A model generated the notes under the pieces. The model made no database searches, had not been told where the DNA came from, and worked only from the letters and a program-made list of their open reading frames with translations. DNA of 64,000 nt from Acidimicrobiales bacterium (GTDB lineage: Bacteria; Actinomycetota; Acidimicrobiia; Acidimicrobiales; DATDAH01), in the NCBI GenBank assembly GCA_016794585.1, contig JAEUJM010000031.1:1-64000 (forward strand), given 5' to 3'. This document shows positions 25,204-35,993 of the stretch, piece by piece (positions within the stretch are counted from its first letter, which is position 1; each line of letters starts with the position of its first letter). Both the position numbers and the translations under genes were made by a program.

Positions 25204-26220
25204 TCAGCCCTCGACGGTGGGGCGGAGGCGGCTGGCCGAGCGGTTGGCCTCCCAGTGGCTGCGGCGGGCGAAGTGTGGCGGTCGACTGGTGAGCTCGTCG
25301 GTCTCCAGCCACAGTCGCTTCAGGTGGCGGACCCGGCCGGTCGGCCGGTCGTCCACGTACGCGGTGCGTCCGTGGAGGACGTGGAAGTTGTTGATGAACT
25401 GGATGTCGCCGGGGCGCAGCTCCATGAGCACGTGGTTGTCCGGATCCTCGGCCATCGTCTCGACCGCCAGCAGGGCCTCTCGCTGGAGGTCGCTCAGGCG
25501 AGGCGCCTCGGGATGGCGCTGGGACGCCCAGATGTAGGGCGGGATGCACCGCACGAACAGGCGCCCGTCCCACTCGGTGAAGACGGGCAGCTCGTAGAAC
25601 GAGGGTCCGCCCGCCGGCTGCTCACCCCGGAAGTCGTAGGGGTACGGCTCGTAGAGGGCGGCGGCGAGGTCGGGGCGCTCCCGGACCAGCCGGTTGTGGA
25701 TGCGCACCGAGCTCGAAACCGCCGAGAGCCCGCCACCCATGCCGTTCTCCAGGCAGAGGAGGCCGACGAGGTCGGCCCCGTCGCAGTGGAAGGGCAGGGC
25801 GATGCCGCCGAGCTCGTTGCCCCGGGCCGTGGGGTCGTCGGGCCGCTTGGCCTGGTCGGTCACGTCGCCGAGCACGTGCCCGTGCCGGTTCTGGGCGAGG
25901 GGCACCCCCAGGTGCAGACCGAGGCCCCAGTAGAGGAGCTCCATCTCGTCCTGGGTGTAGGCCGAGCGATCGATCCCGCGGAGGCGGACGAAGCCCCGGC
26001 CGTCGATCAGCTCGAGCTCGACCGCGGCGAGGCGGTACACGAACCCACCGAGGGGGAAGTCGTCGGCGGACAGCTCGAGGGGATCGGTCGACCGCCGCAT
26101 CGCGTGGCGCAGGGCGGCGTCCAGCTCGCCGAGCTCGTCGGGTGTGAGGTGCACGGTCCAGGTGTCCTCGTCGGCCACGTCGGCCGCCGTCCACTCGCAC
26201 TGCGGCTCGAGGACCCTCAC
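25204..26220 (-). CDS. TauD/TfdA-family Fe(II)/2-oxoglutarate dioxygenase
   Basis: The 338-residue protein (GTG 26220) has the TauD triad: HxD in LPFHCDGADLVGL, the distal His in FHVLHGRTAY, and Arg in RVRHLKRLWL for 2-oxoglutarate. The long N-terminal half with GFVRLRGID and the middle GGLSAVSSSVRIHN match the clavaminate synthase-like arm of the family. Substrate cannot be read from sequence. It is followed on the same strand by the MFS exporter, suggesting production and export of a hydroxylated compound, which is inference. Confidence 0.82.
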   Translation of the reverse strand: MRVLEPQCEWTAADVADEDTWTVHLTPDELGELDAALRHAMRRSTDPLELSADDFPLGGFVYRLAAVELELIDGRGFVRLRGIDRSAYTQDEMELLYWGLGLHLGVPLAQNRHGHVLGDVTDQAKRPDDPTARGNELGGIALPFHCDGADLVGLLCLENGMGGGLSAVSSSVRIHNRLVRERPDLAAALYEPYPYDFRGEQPAGGPSFYELPVFTEWDGRLFVRCIPPYIWASQRHPEAPRLSDLQREALLAVETMAEDPDNHVLMELRPGDIQFINNFHVLHGRTAYVDDRPTGRVRHLKRLWLETDELTSRPPHFARRSHWEANRSASRLRPTVEG

Positions 26221-26409
26221 GACGCGCCGCCGCCATCCACGACGGTGCTCGCCCCGACGACGCGACCATGCTCCATGGATCCCCCTGTCCTCGCAGGCTA
26301 GATCGCCGACGCGCACGGACGGTCGACCGCTCGTCGGCCGCCCCGGGGACTCGGCCTGTGGCTCTGGCTCGGGTTCGGGGGCGGGGTGGACGACCGGCGG
26401 GGCCGGCGA

Positions 26410-28417: not shown

Positions 28418-29161
28418 GTGACCTACTGCCTGTCGATGCGCATGGACGACGGTCTCGTCTTCCTGTCCGATTCGCGCACGAACGCCGGCGTGGACAACGT
28501 CAGCATCTACCGCAAGCTCTTCGTCTTCCACCCTGCGCCGGACCGAACCATCGTGATCCAGTCGGCGGGCAACCTGGCCACCACCCAGGAGGTCATGGAT
28601 CGAATCGAGCGGGATCTCGCCACGCCGGACGCCACCGCGTCCCTGTCGACCGGTGGCAGCCTCGCCGACGCCGCGCTCTACGTCGGCCGCCTCAGCGTGG
28701 AGGTGGCCGACTCCCATCGGGCGGCGCTCGCCGAGTCCGGCGCTGACGGCACGTCGACGTTCCTCGTCGGCGGACAGATCGAGGACCAACCGCCGGACAT
28801 CCTGCTCGTGTACCCCGAGGGGAACTACATCCGGGCGTCGGACGACCGGCCGTTCCTGCAGATCGGCGAGACGAAGTACGGCAAGTTCCTGCTCGAGCTC
28901 GCCACCCGTGCCCACCTCCCGATCCTCGGCGCCGCGAAGGTCGCGCTCAGCTCGATGGTCAGCACTGCGGACGCCAACCTGTCCGTGGGTCCGCCCTACG
29001 ACCTCGGCATCTACCGGCCCGCCACCCACCAGATCGAACACGTGCGCATCGCTGCGGACTCGCCCTACCTGGCCCGCCTCCAGGGGGTTTGGAACCGGCA
29101 CCTGACCGCCGCCCTCGATGAGTTGCCCATGGTCGAGCCCGGCGACCTCCAGTTCCTCTGA
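28418..29161 (+). CDS. Anbu, ancestral proteasome-like peptidase subunit
   Basis: The 247-residue protein begins MTYCLSMRMDDGLVFLSDSRTNAGVDN, so removal of Met exposes Thr as N-terminal nucleophile, as in proteasome beta subunits. SDSRTNAGVDNxSxYRK is characteristic of Anbu, with the catalytic Lys in YRKL. Anbu forms open ring or lock-washer assemblies. Bacterial anbu usually sits with a transglutaminase, an alpha-E protein and an ATP-grasp gene; none is here, and the neighbour is a glutaminase. GGAGG lies eight bases before the GTG start. Confidence 0.87.
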   Translation: MTYCLSMRMDDGLVFLSDSRTNAGVDNVSIYRKLFVFHPAPDRTIVIQSAGNLATTQEVMDRIERDLATPDATASLSTGGSLADAALYVGRLSVEVADSHRAALAESGADGTSTFLVGGQIEDQPPDILLVYPEGNYIRASDDRPFLQIGETKYGKFLLELATRAHLPILGAAKVALSSMVSTADANLSVGPPYDLGIYRPATHQIEHVRIAADSPYLARLQGVWNRHLTAALDELPMVEPGDLQFL

Positions 29162-29242: not shown

Positions 29243-30466
29243 TCAGGCGGGGGTGAGGACCAGGGGGAGGCCCGCGAAGCGGCGGAGGAAGATGCTCGGG
29301 CGGCGGGTCGCGGGATCGTCGGGGACGGGCGCGATCGACGCGGTGCGGGCCAGGAGCTGCTCGATGGCGAGGCGGGCTTCGAGGCGGGCGATGGGCGCAC
29401 CGATGCAGAAGTGCATCCCCTTGCCGAAGGCGTAGTGCGGTGGCTGTGGCCCTTCAGGCGACGTCGGCGCGCCAGGCGCCGGCCGGTTGGCCGCCGCCCA
29501 CATCAACAGGACCCGGCTGCCGGCCGCGATGGCCACACCTCCGAGCTCGGTGTCCGCCGGCGCGTGGCGGTAGTGGAACTGGAACGGGCCGTCGTCGCGC
29601 AGCGTGTCCTCGAGGAACTCGGCGATCATCTGCGGGTCGGCGCGGAGCTGAGCCTGGAGACCCTCGTCGCGGGCGAGGCGCTCGCACGCCGTCGCGATGA
29701 GGGTGGCGGTCGTCTCGGAGCCCGCCGACACGAGGATGAGCAGGATGTTCTTGACCTCGTCCCCGGTGATCTCGCCGGCGGCGATGTCGGCGCCGAAGAC
29801 CCCGAGCAGCCCCGGACGTTCGTCGGGCGGGAGGGCGAGGGCCCGGTCGAGCTCCTCGTGCACGATGATGCCGAGCTCGAAGGCCGCCACCGACGCGGCG
29901 TCGGTGCCGTCGCTCGTGGTCACCCCGTCGAGCAATTCACCCGTGCGCACGACGAGGTCGGACAGCCGTGGCCAGAGGTGGTCCGGCAGGCCGATGAGCC
30001 GGCACACCACCCGGGTCGCCACGGCGTCGCCGAAGCCGGCCACGGCGTCGACCGGCCCGGTCCCCAGCATCGGAGTGAGCTGCTCGTCGACGATGCGCTC
30101 GATGTCGGGGGTCAGCGCCGCCACCGCGGCCGGGCTCAGGTGCTGCTGGAGGAGCCGCCGGTGCCGGGTGTGGATCGGCGGGTCGGCGGTGGCCAGCACG
30201 TGCATCGGGTCACCGAACGGGAGCAGCCCGTAGGGCTCGGTACCGCCGGTCCCGTCGCTGCGCAAGAGCGTGACCAGGTTCGAGGAGAGGTCGTCGGGCC
30301 GGCCCACCGCCTCGCGGATGAGTCCCGGGTCGGACACGAGGAAGGTGTCCTGGCCGGGCACCTGCCACACCGGCGCCTCCCGCCGCAGCTGGTCGTACAG
30401 CGGGCGGGGGTCGGCCAGCACCGCCGGCGAGAGCAGCAGCCCCGGGTCCGTGAGGTCGAACGCCAT
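29243..30466 (-). CDS. Cytochrome P450
   Basis: The 407-residue protein has the I-helix VSAGSETTATL and heme-binding loop FGKGMHFCIGAPIARLEARL, with the Cys thiolate. The K-helix E-x-x-R is D-T-L-R here (LEDTLRDD), so Glu is replaced by Asp. It is soluble and bacterial class I, needing ferredoxin and reductase from elsewhere. It is the last gene of the five-gene leftward operon and starts 10 nt after the alcohol dehydrogenase. Substrate unknown. Confidence 0.87.
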   Translation of the reverse strand: MAFDLTDPGLLLSPAVLADPRPLYDQLRREAPVWQVPGQDTFLVSDPGLIREAVGRPDDLSSNLVTLLRSDGTGGTEPYGLLPFGDPMHVLATADPPIHTRHRRLLQQHLSPAAVAALTPDIERIVDEQLTPMLGTGPVDAVAGFGDAVATRVVCRLIGLPDHLWPRLSDLVVRTGELLDGVTTSDGTDAASVAAFELGIIVHEELDRALALPPDERPGLLGVFGADIAAGEITGDEVKNILLILVSAGSETTATLIATACERLARDEGLQAQLRADPQMIAEFLEDTLRDDGPFQFHYRHAPADTELGGVAIAAGSRVLLMWAAANRPAPGAPTSPEGPQPPHYAFGKGMHFCIGAPIARLEARLAIEQLLARTASIAPVPDDPATRRPSIFLRRFAGLPLVLTPA

Positions 30467-30476
30467 GCCGCTCGAC

Positions 30477-31490
30477 TCAGAACTGGGAGGGGTCGACGGT
30501 GACGAGGACCTTGCCGCAGTCCTTCGATCCCTCGAGCGTGCCGAGGGCGGCGTCGACGTCGTCCAACGCGAAGCGGTGGGTGAGCAGCGGCGCGAGGTCG
30601 CGGCGGGCGAGCAGGTCGATCGAGTCGGCGAACCGCGGCGGGTACTCCATCGACCCCCGCAAGGTCAGCTCCTTCATCAGCACCAGCAGGAAGCTCGTCG
30701 GCACCGGGGCGTAGTGGAGCGCGACGACCGAGAGGCGGGCGCCGACGGCGGCGTGGTCGATCACGTCCGTGATGACCCGGTCCACGCCCGATGCCTCGAT
30801 GAAGGCGGCGGTGGCGGGCGTCGGGCCGAACAGGAACGGGGAGGTGCCGTGCAGCTCGGCGAGCTCGCCCCACACATCGGTCGCCATCGGGTCGAGGGCG
30901 GCCTGGGCACCGAGGCCGAGGGCCAGCTCGCGCCGGGTGGCGCTGGGCTCGACCGCCACCACCTTCTCGTGGCCGCGGTCGACGAGGGTGGCGATGGCGG
31001 CGAGCCCGATGGGGCCGCAGCCGAACACCGCGACTCCGTCGCCCGGGCGCACGTCGGCCTGGTCGGCGGCGTGCATCCCCACGGCCAACGGCTCGGCGAA
31101 GGCGGCCACGTCGAGCGCGAGGTCGTCGGGCACGGGGTGCAGGAAGCGGTCGGCCTGCGGCACGAGCAGCAACGGGGTGAGCCCGCCCATCGGCGCGCCG
31201 CCGCCGATGCGGCCGGCGTCCTCGCTGCCGGGCTGCACGACGACCCGGTCGCCCACACGAGCGCCCGTGACCTCGGGGCCGACCCACTCGACGGTCCCCG
31301 CCATCTCGTGGCCGAGGCACAGCGGCTCGGGGCCGGGGCCGGCCATGCCGCCGAGGCGGATGTAGCTGAGGTCGCTGCCGCAGATCCCGCAGGCCGCCAC
31401 CTTCACGAGCGCGTCCCGGGGCCCGGGTTCGGGCTCGGGCACGTCGTCGAGACGGACGTCGCCGGGACCGTGGACTCGCACCTGTCGCAT
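30477..31490 (-). CDS. Zinc-binding alcohol dehydrogenase (MDR superfamily)
   Basis: The 337-residue protein has catalytic zinc ligands in GICGSDLSY and LGHEMAGTVE, and a Rossmann motif VFGCGPIGLAA. The four-Cys structural zinc lobe is missing: where it should lie, the sequence is VVVQPGSEDAGRIGGG. It is coupled to the P450 (10 nt) and the SDR (25 nt). The role may be oxidation of an alcohol produced by the P450 or released by a sulfatase-like step; this is inference. Confidence 0.87.
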   Translation of the reverse strand: MRQVRVHGPGDVRLDDVPEPEPGPRDALVKVAACGICGSDLSYIRLGGMAGPGPEPLCLGHEMAGTVEWVGPEVTGARVGDRVVVQPGSEDAGRIGGGAPMGGLTPLLLVPQADRFLHPVPDDLALDVAAFAEPLAVGMHAADQADVRPGDGVAVFGCGPIGLAAIATLVDRGHEKVVAVEPSATRRELALGLGAQAALDPMATDVWGELAELHGTSPFLFGPTPATAAFIEASGVDRVITDVIDHAAVGARLSVVALHYAPVPTSFLLVLMKELTLRGSMEYPPRFADSIDLLARRDLAPLLTHRFALDDVDAALGTLEGSKDCGKVLVTVDPSQF

Positions 31491-31515
31491 GTGTTCGCTC
31501 CTCGTCCTTGGGCTC

Positions 31516-32274
31516 TCAGCTCGCCAGGTACCCGCCGTCGACGGCGAGGGTCGTGCCGGTGGTGTACGCCGACGCCGCGCTGGACAGGAAGAGGACGGCG
31601 GCGGCGATCTCCTCGGGAGTGCCGGTGCGCCCCATCGGGATGCGGGCCAGCTCGGCGTCCATGATCTCGGGGAACGCCGCCATCGGGGCGGTCATCGGGG
31701 TGTCGATGAGTCCGGGGGCCACGGCGTTGACCCGCACCCCCCGCGTCGCCCAGCGGCGGGCGAGGTTGGCGGTCAGGGTGACGATGGCGGCCTTGGCCGA
31801 GCCGTAGCCCGGGACGATGTCGGTCGAGCGGAACGCGGTCATCGACGCGAGGTTCACGACGCTGGCGCCACCGGGGTGCTCGCTCGCGAACAGCAGCTTG
31901 CGTAGCCCGGTGGTGAGACGTTGGGGGCCGACGAGGTTGAGCTCGATCGCGGCGGCGAATCCCTCGGCGGTCCACTCGTCCAGCCCGCCCGGCAGGTTGG
32001 CGCCGGCGTTGTTGACGAGCACGTCGATCGGGCCGCTCCCGGTGAGATCCTCGACGAGTGCGTCCACGGACGCGGGGTCGGCGACGTCGAGCTGGTGGTA
32101 CCCGAAGCCGGACAGGTCGGTGTCGTACTCCCCCGGCCCCGAGCGGGTGCCCGTGACGGTCACGTCGGCGCCCACCGCGGCGAACGCGGTCGCCACCGCG
32201 TGGCCGATGCCGCTCGTCCCGCCGGTGACGAGCACCCGGGCGCCGGTGAAGTCGAAGGTGACGGTGGCGGCCAT
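31516..32274 (-). CDS. Short-chain dehydrogenase/reductase
   Basis: The 252-residue protein has TGGTSGIGHAVA for cofactor binding, NNAGANLPGG, active-site Ser in VNLASMTAF, and Tyr-Lys in PGYGSAKAAI, finishing with AVDGGYLAS. It is a classical SDR. Its ATG overlaps the TGA of the upstream MBL gene by one base (TGATG), showing tight coupling. Confidence 0.9.
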   Translation of the reverse strand: MAATVTFDFTGARVLVTGGTSGIGHAVATAFAAVGADVTVTGTRSGPGEYDTDLSGFGYHQLDVADPASVDALVEDLTGSGPIDVLVNNAGANLPGGLDEWTAEGFAAAIELNLVGPQRLTTGLRKLLFASEHPGGASVVNLASMTAFRSTDIVPGYGSAKAAIVTLTANLARRWATRGVRVNAVAPGLIDTPMTAPMAAFPEIMDAELARIPMGRTGTPEEIAAAVLFLSSAASAYTTGTTLAVDGGYLAS

Positions 32275-33515
32275 CAGCGGGCCAGCTTCTCGATCGAGCG
32301 GCGCAGCCAGGCGCTCTCCCAGAAGTTCGCCGTGTCGGCGAGCAGCGCCTCGTGGGCGGCGAGGGCCACGGCCTTGGCGCCGGCGTGGCCGCGTTCGACG
32401 GCCAGCACCACGTCGGTGAGCTGGATCGCCTCCACCGGGCGGCCGGCGTCGAGGTGGGCCTGCGCCGCCGCGATCAGCGGGTCGGCGCCTGCCGCGGTCA
32501 CGAGGTCCGGGGCGACCGCCAGCGGAGCCACGCCGTAGAGCTCGGTGGTCGAGCGGTGGTGGAACCAGCCGGCGTAGTTCTCCCAGATGGCCCGCACGTT
32601 CCAGGGCGTCTTGCCGTACCCCTCGCCCACGTCGAGGTGGTCGGGCACCCGGACGGTGCGCATCAGCTCCCACACATCGGCGCCGGCGTTCATGCCGTCG
32701 ACGGTGCGGTCGTGAACCCAGCGCATCGCCTCCTGCATCGCCTCGATCTCCTCGACGATGCGGTCGCCGCCCTCGATGAGGTCGAAGTGGCCGGTGAGGA
32801 GACGCTCGGGGCGCAGCTCCTTCACGATGTCGAGCGAGTCGATGTAGGTGAGGGCGTCGCGGTAGCGGTCGCCGCGGATGGTGACGAGGTTGGGCACGTG
32901 GCCGAACAGCGGCCCGGTGAGGTTGCCCGACAGCAGGGTGGCGGTCTGGGGCAGCCAGATCACCAGCGAGTCGAAGGTCTCCCCGCCGGGGGTGGCGATG
33001 AGCACCAGCTCGCGGTCGCCGACGGTCAGCTCGAGGCGCTCGTCGACGAGGACGGTCGGCTCGGGGAGCTCCGACGAGGCCGCCTCCACCCCGAGGGCCC
33101 GGGTGTGCTCCATCGCGGCGAGGATGGCGTCGATCCAGGCGAAGGCCGAGTTGCGGGAGCGGAAGGCCTCGAGGCGTTGGTTGTCGTTGCGCCACACGCC
33201 GTGGTTGGCCTGGGCGATGAGGTCGGTGCCCTCATCGACGAGGACGGGCAGGCCGCCGACGTGGTCGTAGTGGCCCTGGGTGAGGATCACCGATCGGATG
33301 GGCGAGCCGTCGACGGCGTCGTACTTGGCCCGGTGCAGCGGGCCCTCGAAGCCCATGCCGCTGTTGACCACGACCCGACCGTCCGCGGTGGTGATCAAGT
33401 AGCTGTTGCTGAGCCCAGGTGACAGCCACACGCCGTCGCCCACGTCGACCGCCGGCGCGTCGGTGGCCGGGGTGATGGCGTCGGCGCCGGGCCGTTCGCG
33501 GTGGATGCCGGGCAT
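32274..33515 (-). CDS. Alkylsulfatase-like metallo-beta-lactamase protein
   Basis: The 413-residue protein has the MBL fold followed by the alkyl-sulfatase dimerisation domain (WFHHRSTTELYGVAP and the following helices), as in SdsA1/BDS1. The metal motif H-x-H-x-D-H is altered: TQGHYDHVGG, with Q80 where the first His should be, keeping H82, D84 and H85. LLTGHFDLI supplies another His. Catalysis may therefore differ or be lost. Overlaps by one base at both ends with its neighbours, so it is part of the same operon. Confidence 0.8.
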   Translation of the reverse strand: MPGIHRERPGADAITPATDAPAVDVGDGVWLSPGLSNSYLITTADGRVVVNSGMGFEGPLHRAKYDAVDGSPIRSVILTQGHYDHVGGLPVLVDEGTDLIAQANHGVWRNDNQRLEAFRSRNSAFAWIDAILAAMEHTRALGVEAASSELPEPTVLVDERLELTVGDRELVLIATPGGETFDSLVIWLPQTATLLSGNLTGPLFGHVPNLVTIRGDRYRDALTYIDSLDIVKELRPERLLTGHFDLIEGGDRIVEEIEAMQEAMRWVHDRTVDGMNAGADVWELMRTVRVPDHLDVGEGYGKTPWNVRAIWENYAGWFHHRSTTELYGVAPLAVAPDLVTAAGADPLIAAAQAHLDAGRPVEAIQLTDVVLAVERGHAGAKAVALAAHEALLADTANFWESAWLRRSIEKLAR

Positions 33516-34768
33516 CAGCGCACCTCCGGGGTGATCTGGGGGAAGGCCTCGAAGTAGAAGGCGTAGCGGTCGTAGAGGTCGGCGGGCTCGAGGTGGAAGT
33601 CGGCCCGGAGGTCGTAGACGACACGGCCGTCCTTGCCCCGCGGGTTGCCGCCGACGTAGGCCGCCAGCCGCGCCCGGGCCTCGTCGGTCACCCCCACGCC
33701 GGCCACGTCGAGGATGCGAGTCGCCATGGCGAGGTCGTCGGCCATGAACTCGCGGAACTCGACGTCCACCCGCTGCGCGTCGGGGATGAGGTGGGCGTCG
33801 CGCACGCCGGCCCGCAACAACGACTCGATGCGGTCCACCCAGTAGGCGGCCAGCTCGTCGGGCTCGACGGACACGCGCCGGCTGCGGTCGCCGTAGGCGA
33901 GCATGGTGATGGCCGACTGGAGCACCGCGACCGGGTCGCGCAGGGTGAAGGCGACGGTGGCGTCGGGGAAGGTGCGCAGCAGCGGGCCGAGGCGCTCGAG
34001 GTGCTGCGGGCACTTCAGGACCCAGCGGTTCGGGCCGCGCAGGTAGCTGAGCACCTGGAGCTCTCGGCGCAGGAAGGCGTAGTGGGCGTCGTGGTCGAGC
34101 GTGTCCTGGTGGTCCCGCCACGCAGGCACCCGCGCGTGCCACTCGAGCACGTAGGTGCACAGGTCGAGATCCATGAGCTCGCACTCCTCCTCGATGGACC
34201 ACGGCGGGCGGTCGTGCATCAGAGCGGTGAGCGGGGCGACCTGGTTGGCGGCCTCGTGGTCGGCGAGGCAGCGCAGGTAGCGGGGGTCGACGCCGTCGCG
34301 CCCCGGGCCGTCGCCGAGGACAGGGATGGGCTCGGCCACCTCCCACCAGGGCATCGACCGGAGGCGGGTGTCCGAGGCGAGGACGTTGACCAGGTGGGTC
34401 GTGCCCGAGCGGGGCAGCCCCACCACGATGACCGGCGGTTCGAGATCGACCTCGAGGGCCTCGGGGTGGCGCCGCACGAAGTCCTCGAAGCGGAGACGGG
34501 CGGCGAGCAAGCCGACGAGGCGCCGACGCACGATCAGCCGGCCGATGCCGGACAGCCCCTCGTCGGCCTCGACCGCCGCCACCTGGGCGGCGAGGCGGTC
34601 GAGCAGCGTGGGGTCGCCGAAGTCGTCGAGGTGGGTCTGGCGCTCGGCCGAGGCCACCAGGCCCGCAGGATCGAGGTCGATCTCCATCGACCGCGCCAGG
34701 TCGTAGAGCGCCTGGGCGTCGGCGTCGCGCTGGGGCTCGCGCAGGTCCGCGATCCGGATCTCCTCCAC
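33515..34768 (-). CDS. Sulfotransferase
   Basis: The protein (417 residues from GTG 34768; ATG 34795 is possible) has the 5'-PAPS-binding loop VVGLPRSGTTHL and a later RDPVAVLQSA 3'-phosphate motif. These define the Sulfotransfer_3 family, which moves sulfate from PAPS to hydroxyl or amine groups. A purine-rich AGAGGGGGAGG precedes the GTG. It is the first gene of the five-gene operon. Together with a sulfatase-like protein it suggests conjugation and deconjugation of one substrate, or sulfation as activation for elimination; both are inference. Confidence 0.85.
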   Translation of the reverse strand: MEEIRIADLREPQRDADAQALYDLARSMEIDLDPAGLVASAERQTHLDDFGDPTLLDRLAAQVAAVEADEGLSGIGRLIVRRRLVGLLAARLRFEDFVRRHPEALEVDLEPPVIVVGLPRSGTTHLVNVLASDTRLRSMPWWEVAEPIPVLGDGPGRDGVDPRYLRCLADHEAANQVAPLTALMHDRPPWSIEEECELMDLDLCTYVLEWHARVPAWRDHQDTLDHDAHYAFLRRELQVLSYLRGPNRWVLKCPQHLERLGPLLRTFPDATVAFTLRDPVAVLQSAITMLAYGDRSRRVSVEPDELAAYWVDRIESLLRAGVRDAHLIPDAQRVDVEFREFMADDLAMATRILDVAGVGVTDEARARLAAYVGGNPRGKDGRVVYDLRADFHLEPADLYDRYAFYFEAFPQITPEVR

Positions 34769-34880
34769 GCCCTCCCCCTCTTGCCGTCTCTGCATCGGCG
34801 CCCTGTCCGTGCGGACCGCGGGCGGCGGCGACCCTAGCCCGACCCGGGGCGCTGTCCGGCGGGACCCGTCCCCGTGTGGC

Positions 34881-35993
34881 TCAGCTGTCGGCCAGGCGGG
34901 CGGCCTGGGCCTCGGTGACCGCGATCCACTCCTCGACGATGTCGAACACGACGTCGCGGGTGGAGCGGACCGAGTTCATGTTCCCCACGATCTGGCCCAC
35001 CGGCGAGCCCGACAGCTCCTTGTTCTGCGCCCGGGTGAAGCGGTGGGCGGACTCGGCGTAGATGATCCCCTGGAGCGGCATGGGCAGCGGCCCCGGGCCC
35101 TCGGACGACTCCCACGCCTCGGTCCAGGCGGTGCGGAGCTGGCGGGCGGGCTTCCCGGTCATGGCCCGGGAGCGCACCGTGTCGTTCCACGACGCCGCCA
35201 GCAGGTTCTCGACCACCCACGGGCGGGTGTCCGACTCGGCCACCGTCAGCCAGATCGACCCGGTCCACGCGCCCTGGGCGCCGAGCGCCATGGCCGCCGC
35301 CATCTGGCGACCCCGACCGATGCCGCCTGCGGCCAGCACGGGCACGTCCTCGGGCACGGCGTCGACCACCTCGGGCACGAGCACCATGGTCGAGATCTCG
35401 CCGCAGTGGCCGCCGGCCTCGGTGCCCTGGGCGATGAGCACGTCCACGCCGCGCTCGACGTTGCGCTCGGCGTGGCGGGGCGAGCCGCACAGCGCACCGA
35501 CGAGCACGCCGGCGGAGTGGGCGGCGTCGACCGCGTAATCCGGCGGCGGGCCGAGGGCGTTGACCAGCATCGACACGGGGTGCTGGAGCGCCTGGTGGAC
35601 CTGCGCCGGGCCCATCTGGTCGACCCCGAGGCCGGGGGCGATGGTCGGACCTTCGAGGCCCTCGGGCATGGGCGGCACGTCGTGCTCGGCGAGGATGTGC
35701 TCGGCGTACTCGCGGTGCTCCTCTGGGATGAGCGCCTCGAGGTCGGGCAGCTCGAAGTCCTCGCCCTTGCCAACGAACTTCTCGGGCATGGCGAAGTCGA
35801 CCCCGTAGGGCTTGCCGCCGACGTGCTCGTCGATCCAGGTCAGCTCCTGCTCGAGCTGCTCGGGGCTGAAGGCCAGCGCGCCGAGCACGCCGTAGCCGCC
35901 GGCCTTCGAGACCGCGGCGACGACGTCGCGGCAGTGCGAGAAGGCGAAGAGCGGGAACTCGATCCCGAGCCGGTCACAGATCTCCGTGCGCAT
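34881..35993 (-). CDS. Nitronate monooxygenase-like flavoprotein
   Basis: The 370-residue TIM-barrel protein has VAQGTEAGGHCG-like IAQGTEAGGHCGEI, which carries the catalytic His, and LAAGGIGRGRQMAAAMALGAQG for FMN binding. Family members oxidise alkyl nitronates or act as quinone reductases. A C-terminal extension (FTRAQNKELSGSPVGQIVG) is common in actinobacterial members. It is 112 nt upstream of the sulfotransferase on the same strand. It could provide flavin chemistry for the same cluster. Confidence 0.83.
   Translation of the reverse strand: MRTEICDRLGIEFPLFAFSHCRDVVAAVSKAGGYGVLGALAFSPEQLEQELTWIDEHVGGKPYGVDFAMPEKFVGKGEDFELPDLEALIPEEHREYAEHILAEHDVPPMPEGLEGPTIAPGLGVDQMGPAQVHQALQHPVSMLVNALGPPPDYAVDAAHSAGVLVGALCGSPRHAERNVERGVDVLIAQGTEAGGHCGEISTMVLVPEVVDAVPEDVPVLAAGGIGRGRQMAAAMALGAQGAWTGSIWLTVAESDTRPWVVENLLAASWNDTVRSRAMTGKPARQLRTAWTEAWESSEGPGPLPMPLQGIIYAESAHRFTRAQNKELSGSPVGQIVGNMNSVRSTRDVVFDIVEEWIAVTEAQAARLADS

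What the first reader, a model, noticed from the sequence alone, without database searches (positions are those of the whole stretch)
29243..34768. Five-gene operon joining a sulfotransferase, an alkylsulfatase-like protein, two dehydrogenases and a P450
Sulfotransferase, MBL alkylsulfatase-like, SDR, MDR alcohol dehydrogenase and P450 are read leftward with gaps or overlaps of -1, -1, 25 and 10 nt. Two junctions are TGATG. Putting enzymes that add and possibly remove sulfate in one operon with oxidases suggests an undescribed route: sulfate activation or masking of an alcohol followed by oxidation. I know of no named pathway with this gene order.
Basis: partly seen in the sequence, partly recalled or inferred. 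Interest (0 to 1): 0.72.

Follow-up and report, generated by a model that had tools for sequence, protein, structure and literature searches.

The report
Conserved sulfotransferase–sulfatase-like–dehydrogenase gene module
This stretch of DNA holds a gene set, shared by many soil, freshwater and mycobacterial species, that pairs an enzyme for attaching sulfate with a relative of the enzymes that remove it, plus oxidising enzymes; it looks like an undescribed metabolic route that uses sulfate as a temporary handle.

Summary
The five genes are really there, with the gaps stated. They are not chance neighbours. Sulfotransferase (ST), metallo-beta-lactamase-fold alkylsulfatase-like protein (MBL), SDR and a second dehydrogenase form a conserved module. 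Among 395 same-class genomes, 39 carry both the ST clade and this MBL type, 1 the ST only and 4 the MBL only. ST lies near 49 of 52 MBL genes found without bias. The set recurs in shuffled order in Acidimicrobiia, Mycobacterium, Nocardia and Myxococcota. The P450 is not core. It fills an oxygenase slot held elsewhere by a PhyH dioxygenase or a luciferase-like monooxygenase. The MDR alternates with a Gfo/Idh dehydrogenase, never both. In four relatives the genes for making PAPS (cysD, cysNC) sit in the same cluster, so sulfation is very probably a real step. The MBL is modelled closest to Pisa1, an inverting alkylsulfatase, but its first zinc histidine is glutamine. That change arose once, on the branch where the ST partnership appears. 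The N-x-x-T-x-R sulfate-site motif is invariant. Best reading: ST adds sulfate to a hydroxyl as a leaving group, and the MBL displaces it at carbon (inversion or elimination), between oxidation steps. Substrate unknown; chemistry untested; no published description found.

The parts
33515..34768 (-). Sulfotransferase (PF13469, PAPS-type); alternative ATG start at 34795
   Evidence: PAPS-loop residues R120, G122, T123, T124 and 3' site R277, D278, P279, S285 at least 97% conserved in 112 relatives
32274..33515 (-). Short alkylsulfatase-like MBL protein (MBL domain plus dimerisation domain, no SCP-2 domain), Q-type metal site
   Evidence: predicted structure pLDDT 92.6, Z 33.2 to Pisa1 over 390 residues
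31516..32274 (-). Short-chain dehydrogenase/reductase, catalytic S144, Y157, K161 conserved
30477..31490 (-). Zinc-type medium-chain dehydrogenase, sorbitol-dehydrogenase-like; replaced by a Gfo/Idh dehydrogenase in other lineages
29243..30466 (-). Cytochrome P450, nearest solved structure CYP144; accessory oxygenase slot, orthologue at 55-58% identity in three other clusters

Best explanation
The operon is one copy of a conserved metabolic module that uses sulfate as a temporary handle. Inferred order: (1) an oxygenase (P450 here) or a dehydrogenase exposes or prepares a hydroxyl on a small polyol-, sugar- or cyclitol-like molecule; (2) the sulfotransferase moves sulfate from PAPS onto that hydroxyl; (3) the alkylsulfatase-like MBL binds the sulfate ester and displaces the sulfate at carbon, giving the inverted alcohol or an elimination product; (4) the SDR and the MDR (or Gfo/Idh) oxidise or reduce the products. 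Shown here by sequence: the module is conserved as a unit; the sulfotransferase keeps its PAPS-site residues; PAPS synthesis is in the cluster in four relatives; the MBL keeps the sulfate-site motif and a changed metal site tied to the ST partnership. Inferred: that the MBL acts on the ST product, that it cleaves C-O, the step order, and the substrate class.
For: Core conserved and shuffled: MDR-SDR-ST-MBL-P450, GfoIdh-SDR-PhyH-MBL-ST, ST-MBL-SDR-MDR, ST-MDR-MBL-SDR. Co-occurrence across 395 class genomes: both 39, ST only 1 (contig edge), MBL only 4, neither 351. ST near 49 of 52 Q-type MBLs; MDR or Gfo/Idh near 42, never both. ST and MBL distances correlate, r 0.90, 0 of 2000 permutations as high. 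CysD plus CysNC in the cluster in L112 Nocardia carnea, L043, L053 and L039, with a second APS kinase elsewhere in two of those genomes. Q80 in 129 of 129 ST-adjacent MBLs, H in 29 of 35 MBLs without adjacent ST; Q-type is one clade, support 99/93. Closest solved structures are Pisa1, SdsA1 and SdsAP. Pisa1 cleaves C-O with inversion (PMC3920027). Gln at this metal position still gives active enzyme in GOB-18 (PMC5599593). CurM and an olefin-synthase ST use sulfonation to activate substrates (PMC10946740). Sugar-type partners: sorbitol-dehydrogenase-like MDR, sugar-type Gfo/Idh, xylose-isomerase-like TIM barrel.
Against: No activity, substrate or transcript data. The MBL has lost the bridging Glu (G197) and the Pisa1 leaving-group His position is Pro (P208); in one sub-lineage the His243 ligand is Arg, and in L040 most ligands are lost, so hydrolysis may be gone. 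The window itself has no PAPS genes in the operon; its APS kinase is on another contig. An oxygenase was recognised near only 22 of 52 MBLs. The co-occurrence p-value is not corrected for shared ancestry, and the Q clade is one evolutionary event, so the link between Q and ST is one observation deep.
Confidence: 0.4

Rival explanations
1. Sulfate as protecting group: ST masks one hydroxyl, the dehydrogenases and oxygenase act elsewhere on the sulfated molecule, and the MBL then hydrolyses the sulfate with net retention.
Against: The inverting type III alkylsulfatase Pisa1, the closest fold match, attacks carbon; both enzymes look cytosolic, so unmasking would compete with masking unless ordered by specificity.
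Confidence: 0.2
2. The MBL is no longer a hydrolase: it is a sulfate-ester binding, lyase or isomerising partner of the sulfotransferase, and the pathway product stays sulfated or is eliminated.
For: First zinc His to Gln, bridging Glu to Gly/Ser, catalytic His position to Pro, His243 to Arg in a sub-lineage, motif QAYYEQ in L040, while N209, T212, R214 stay invariant.
Against: D84, H85, H82, E179 and H243 are kept in the window protein, enough for a mono-zinc site as in GOB-18.
Confidence: 0.2
3. Catabolic scavenging: the MBL desulfates external sulfate esters and the other enzymes break down the alcohol; the ST is a side partner.
For: IclR regulators next to the mycobacterial copies; alkylsulfatase fold.
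Against: In-cluster PAPS synthesis genes consume ATP to make sulfate donor, which scavenging would not need; ST is the most constant partner; no signal peptide or transporter seen.
Confidence: 0.1
4. Chance neighbours of abundant families in a P450- and ST-rich genome.
For: The genome has about 34 P450 matches and 10 ST matches.
Against: Conservation in many families and phyla with shuffled order, r 0.90 co-divergence, no ST beside any of 29 H-type MBLs.
Confidence: 0.02

Closest known systems
Pisa1 / SdsA1 / SdsAP type III alkylsulfatases
   Same: MBL domain plus dimerisation domain over nearly the whole window protein (Z 33.2, 390 aligned, rmsd 2.6, 22% identity); N-x-x-T-x-R motif
   Different: No SCP-2 domain; His192 (SdsAP) is Gln80, Glu322 is Gly197, Pisa1 His317 is Pro208; nearly always partnered by a sulfotransferase
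GOB-18 class B3 metallo-beta-lactamase
   Same: Gln in place of the first zinc histidine with D-H-H second site; active mono- or bi-zinc (PMC5599593, PMC5531557)
   Different: Different family, no dimerisation domain, hydrolyses beta-lactams; a precedent only
CYP128 / Stf3 sulfomenaquinone genes of M. tuberculosis (own knowledge; PMC7404182 seen as title and abstract only)
   Same: P450 paired with a sulfotransferase
   Different: No MBL, SDR or MDR in the known pathway; window P450 is nearest CYP144 in the PDB
CurM and olefin-synthase sulfotransferases
   Same: Sulfonation used to activate a substrate (PMC10946740)
   Different: Polyketide-type substrates; no MBL partner known to me
Ascamycin/nucleocidin sulfamylation genes
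   Same: Sulfotransfer_3 enzymes with PAPS genes in the ascamycin cluster (PMC10946740)
   Different: Biosynthesis of a sulfamyl nucleoside; no alkylsulfatase-like MBL or this dehydrogenase set reported in the passages read

Membership tests
Type III alkylsulfatase (SdsA1/Pisa1) | MBL fold followed by alkylsulfatase dimerisation domain | tested here: met
   PF14863 52.2 bits over cut-off 26; Z 33.2 to Pisa1
Type III alkylsulfatase (SdsA1/Pisa1) | HxHxDH zinc motif | tested here: not met
   QGHYDH; Q80 in all 135 Q-type proteins examined. Loci L041-L120 came by a search pattern that includes Q, but the loci found by profile search without it agree
Type III alkylsulfatase (SdsA1/Pisa1) | Bridging glutamate (SdsAP E322) | tested here: not met
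   Gly or Ser at position 197; ligands from PMC5426288
Type III alkylsulfatase (SdsA1/Pisa1) | Leaving-group histidine just before the Asn (Pisa1 H317) | tested here: not met
   P208 invariant; a near-invariant H206 lies two residues before. A protonating His in Pisa1 is from PMC3920027; that it is H317 is own knowledge
Type III alkylsulfatase (SdsA1/Pisa1) | Sulfate-site motif N-x-x-T-x-R | tested here: met
   N209, T212, R214 invariant in 86 of 86; sulfate role from own knowledge
Type III alkylsulfatase (SdsA1/Pisa1) | C-terminal SCP-2-like domain | tested here: not met
   413 aa, alignment ends at Pisa1 residue 530
Type III alkylsulfatase (SdsA1/Pisa1) | Hydrolysis of alkyl sulfates | not testable with these tools
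   needs purified protein
PAPS-dependent sulfotransferase (PF13469) | 5'-phosphosulfate loop and 3'-phosphate site | tested here: met
   PRSGTT and RDP..QS conserved
PAPS-dependent sulfotransferase (PF13469) | Uses PAPS | tested here: inconclusive
   Indirect only: cysD and cysNC beside the ST in four relatives
Cytochrome P450 | Heme-thiolate Cys and I-helix A-G-x-E/D-T | tested here: met
   FGKGMHFCIG and SAGSETT
Cytochrome P450 | EXXR motif | tested here: not met
   EDTLR: Asp where Glu is usual; Met or Leu in two orthologues, Glu in L039
CYP128/Stf3 sulfomenaquinone pathway | CYP128-type P450 plus Stf3 only | tested here: not met
   Best PDB match is CYP144; core here is ST, MBL, SDR, MDR and the P450 is optional. 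Direct comparison with CYP128 and Stf3 sequences was not made

The most novel reading that the evidence does not exclude
A PAPS-driven 'sulfate swap' pathway: a sulfotransferase makes an alcohol into a sulfate leaving group and a dedicated Gln-type alkylsulfatase relative displaces it at carbon, so that a free hydroxyl is inverted or eliminated at the cost of ATP, as a general catabolic or biosynthetic step in actinobacteria and relatives.
Probability: 0.3. Interest if true: 0.85.

Novelty: new variant of a known kind. Interest (0 to 1): 0.62.

Why it matters
A widespread gene module that builds a sulfate ester and carries a sulfatase relative side by side would be futile if the MBL simply undid the ST reaction, so it points to chemistry in which sulfate is a leaving or protecting group. 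It would give a testable function to a large family of actinobacterial Sulfotransfer_3 enzymes, including mycobacterial ones, most of which to my knowledge have no known role. It also defines a clade of MBL proteins wrongly readable as plain alkylsulfatases.

Tried and rejected
Chance neighbourhood: rejected for the core. P450 as an essential partner: rejected, found in few clusters. Nitronate monooxygenase upstream and TauD-like gene as parts: not conserved with the module. Suspicion that Q80 is an artefact of the TQ-containing search pattern: checked with profile searches that do not require it; it holds. L216-L218 seemed to lack ST: the same genomes carry the ST on another contig. Literature searches for this gene combination returned nothing. 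No NCBIfam equivalog reached its cut-off for the five proteins. Promoter and terminator scans were empty. The TIM-barrel accessory has no PDB sequence match; only a weak Pfam match and a middling fold match. The structural search cannot show that other MBL families are excluded.

Full report
Five minus-strand genes lie at 29243-34768 with overlaps and gaps of -1, -1, 25 and 10 nt and two TGATG junctions. Pfam names them as a Sulfotransfer_3 enzyme (ST), an MBL protein with an alkylsulfatase dimerisation domain, an SDR, a zinc-type MDR and a P450. The window comes from a 5.49 Mb genome with about 34 P450 matches, 10 ST and 5 alkylsulfatase-dimerisation proteins. The relatives found (L048, L054 and L057 among them) place it in or near the Acidimicrobiia.

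The neighbourhood is not random. A search of 59 relatives gave five clear orthologues of the MBL (40-51% identity) set apart from all others (mostly 31% or less). All five lie beside an ST and an SDR or a shuffled form of the set; L039 carries all five genes in the order MDR-SDR-ST-MBL-P450. A pattern-based scan of one genome for each of 84,980 species gave 467 relatives. The best 80 come from Acidimicrobiia, many Mycobacterium and Mycolicibacterium, Nocardia carnea and two proteobacterial or myxococcal MAGs, with ST directly before the MBL nearly throughout.

Profile searches without that pattern covered 395 class genomes and 396 phylum genomes. The ST clade is in 40 class genomes, the Q-type MBL in 43, both in 39 (Fisher p 4e-48, not corrected for ancestry). 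Around 52 Q-type MBLs, ST is near in 49, SDR in 43, and MDR or Gfo/Idh in 42 (28 and 14, never both). The oxygenase slot holds PhyH in 13, P450 in 6 and luciferase-like monooxygenase in 3. P450 goes with MDR, PhyH mostly with Gfo/Idh. Even within one genus (g53) one species has the P450 (L191) and another PhyH (L193). ST and MBL distances co-vary with r 0.90 over 36 loci, 0 of 2000 permutations as high. ST and MBL lie within 150 nt on one strand in 119 of 127 cases (this count includes the pattern-found loci and a few duplicates).

Sulfation is probably a real step. In Nocardia carnea (L112), two Acidimicrobiia-type MAGs (L043, L053) and L039, cysD and cysNC (ATP sulfurylase plus APS kinase, which make PAPS) follow the core genes on the same strand. 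L039's genome and Nocardia carnea have a second APS kinase elsewhere, so the cluster copy looks dedicated. The window's own APS kinase is on another contig. The PAPS-site residues of the ST are conserved.

The MBL is alkylsulfatase-like but not a standard member. The AlphaFold model (pLDDT 92.6) matches Pisa1 best, Z 33.2, rmsd 2.6, 390 residues, followed by SdsAP and SdsA1. It lacks the SCP-2 domain. Against the zinc ligands of SdsAP (PMC5426288), H192 is Q80, H194 is H82, D196 is D84, H197 is H85, E303 is E179, E322 is G197 and H367 is H243. The Pisa1 leaving-group histidine position is P208, with a near-invariant H206 beside it. N209, T212 and R214 are invariant. All 129 ST-adjacent MBLs have Q80; all 29 H-type MBLs lack an ST; the six other Q-type cases are cut by contig ends or have the ST on another contig. 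On the tree the Q type is one clade (99/93), sister to H-type proteins without ST. Gln at this position is not fatal: GOB-18 is active with one or two zinc ions (PMC5599593, PMC5531557).

Mechanism. Pisa1 attacks carbon, breaks C-O and inverts the alcohol (PMC3920027). CurM and an olefin-synthase ST use sulfonation to activate substrates (PMC10946740). An ST and a sulfatase relative with no visible signal peptide, in one operon, make sense if sulfate is a leaving group that the MBL displaces, giving inversion or elimination, with the SDR and MDR or Gfo/Idh doing redox on either side. I give this about 0.4. The protecting-group and non-hydrolase rivals get about 0.2 each. The MDR is nearest sorbitol dehydrogenase, the Gfo/Idh nearest sugar and inositol dehydrogenases, and a recurrent accessory is a xylose-isomerase-like TIM barrel. 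These hint at a sugar-, polyol- or cyclitol-like substrate, but this is a guess from family resemblance. The PhyH type is nearest MysH, which as I recall modifies mycosporine-like amino acids.

Verdict. The gene set is a real, widespread, apparently unpublished module. Conservation as a unit: very likely (about 0.95). Sulfation step: likely (about 0.85). MBL acting on the ST product: probable (about 0.7). Exact chemistry and substrate: open.

Noticed in passing
window 29243-30466: The P450 has Asp where the EXXR motif normally has Glu (EDTLR); orthologues L191 and L201 have Met and Leu there.
   Followed up: partly
window 25204-26316: TauD/TfdA-family dioxygenase on the same strand; best NCBIfam matches are trimethylamine-type dioxygenases, all far below cut-off.
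   Followed up: no
window 34881-35993: Nitronate monooxygenase-like flavoprotein just upstream of the ST on the same strand, 112 nt away; not conserved with the module.
   Followed up: partly
window 28418-29161: 247-aa protein with no Pfam match whose N-terminus (MTYCLSMRMDDGLVFLSDSRTNAG) looks like the proteasome-type Anbu peptidases (from memory).
   Followed up: no
L040:5310-6557: An ST-linked MBL whose metal motif has decayed to QAYYEQ while the sulfate-site motif remains.
   Followed up: partly
L085 and L238 (Mycobacterium colombiense): Two copies of the module in tandem, the second with a very divergent sulfotransferase (27% identity).
   Followed up: no
L062 and L063: Copies in Pseudomonadota and Myxococcota MAGs nest among actinobacterial ones, with the core genes 56-64% identical to the window's, suggesting transfer of the whole cluster (or binning error).
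   Followed up: partly
L036:2739-3662: A second sulfotransferase of another family (PF00685) beside the module.
   Followed up: no
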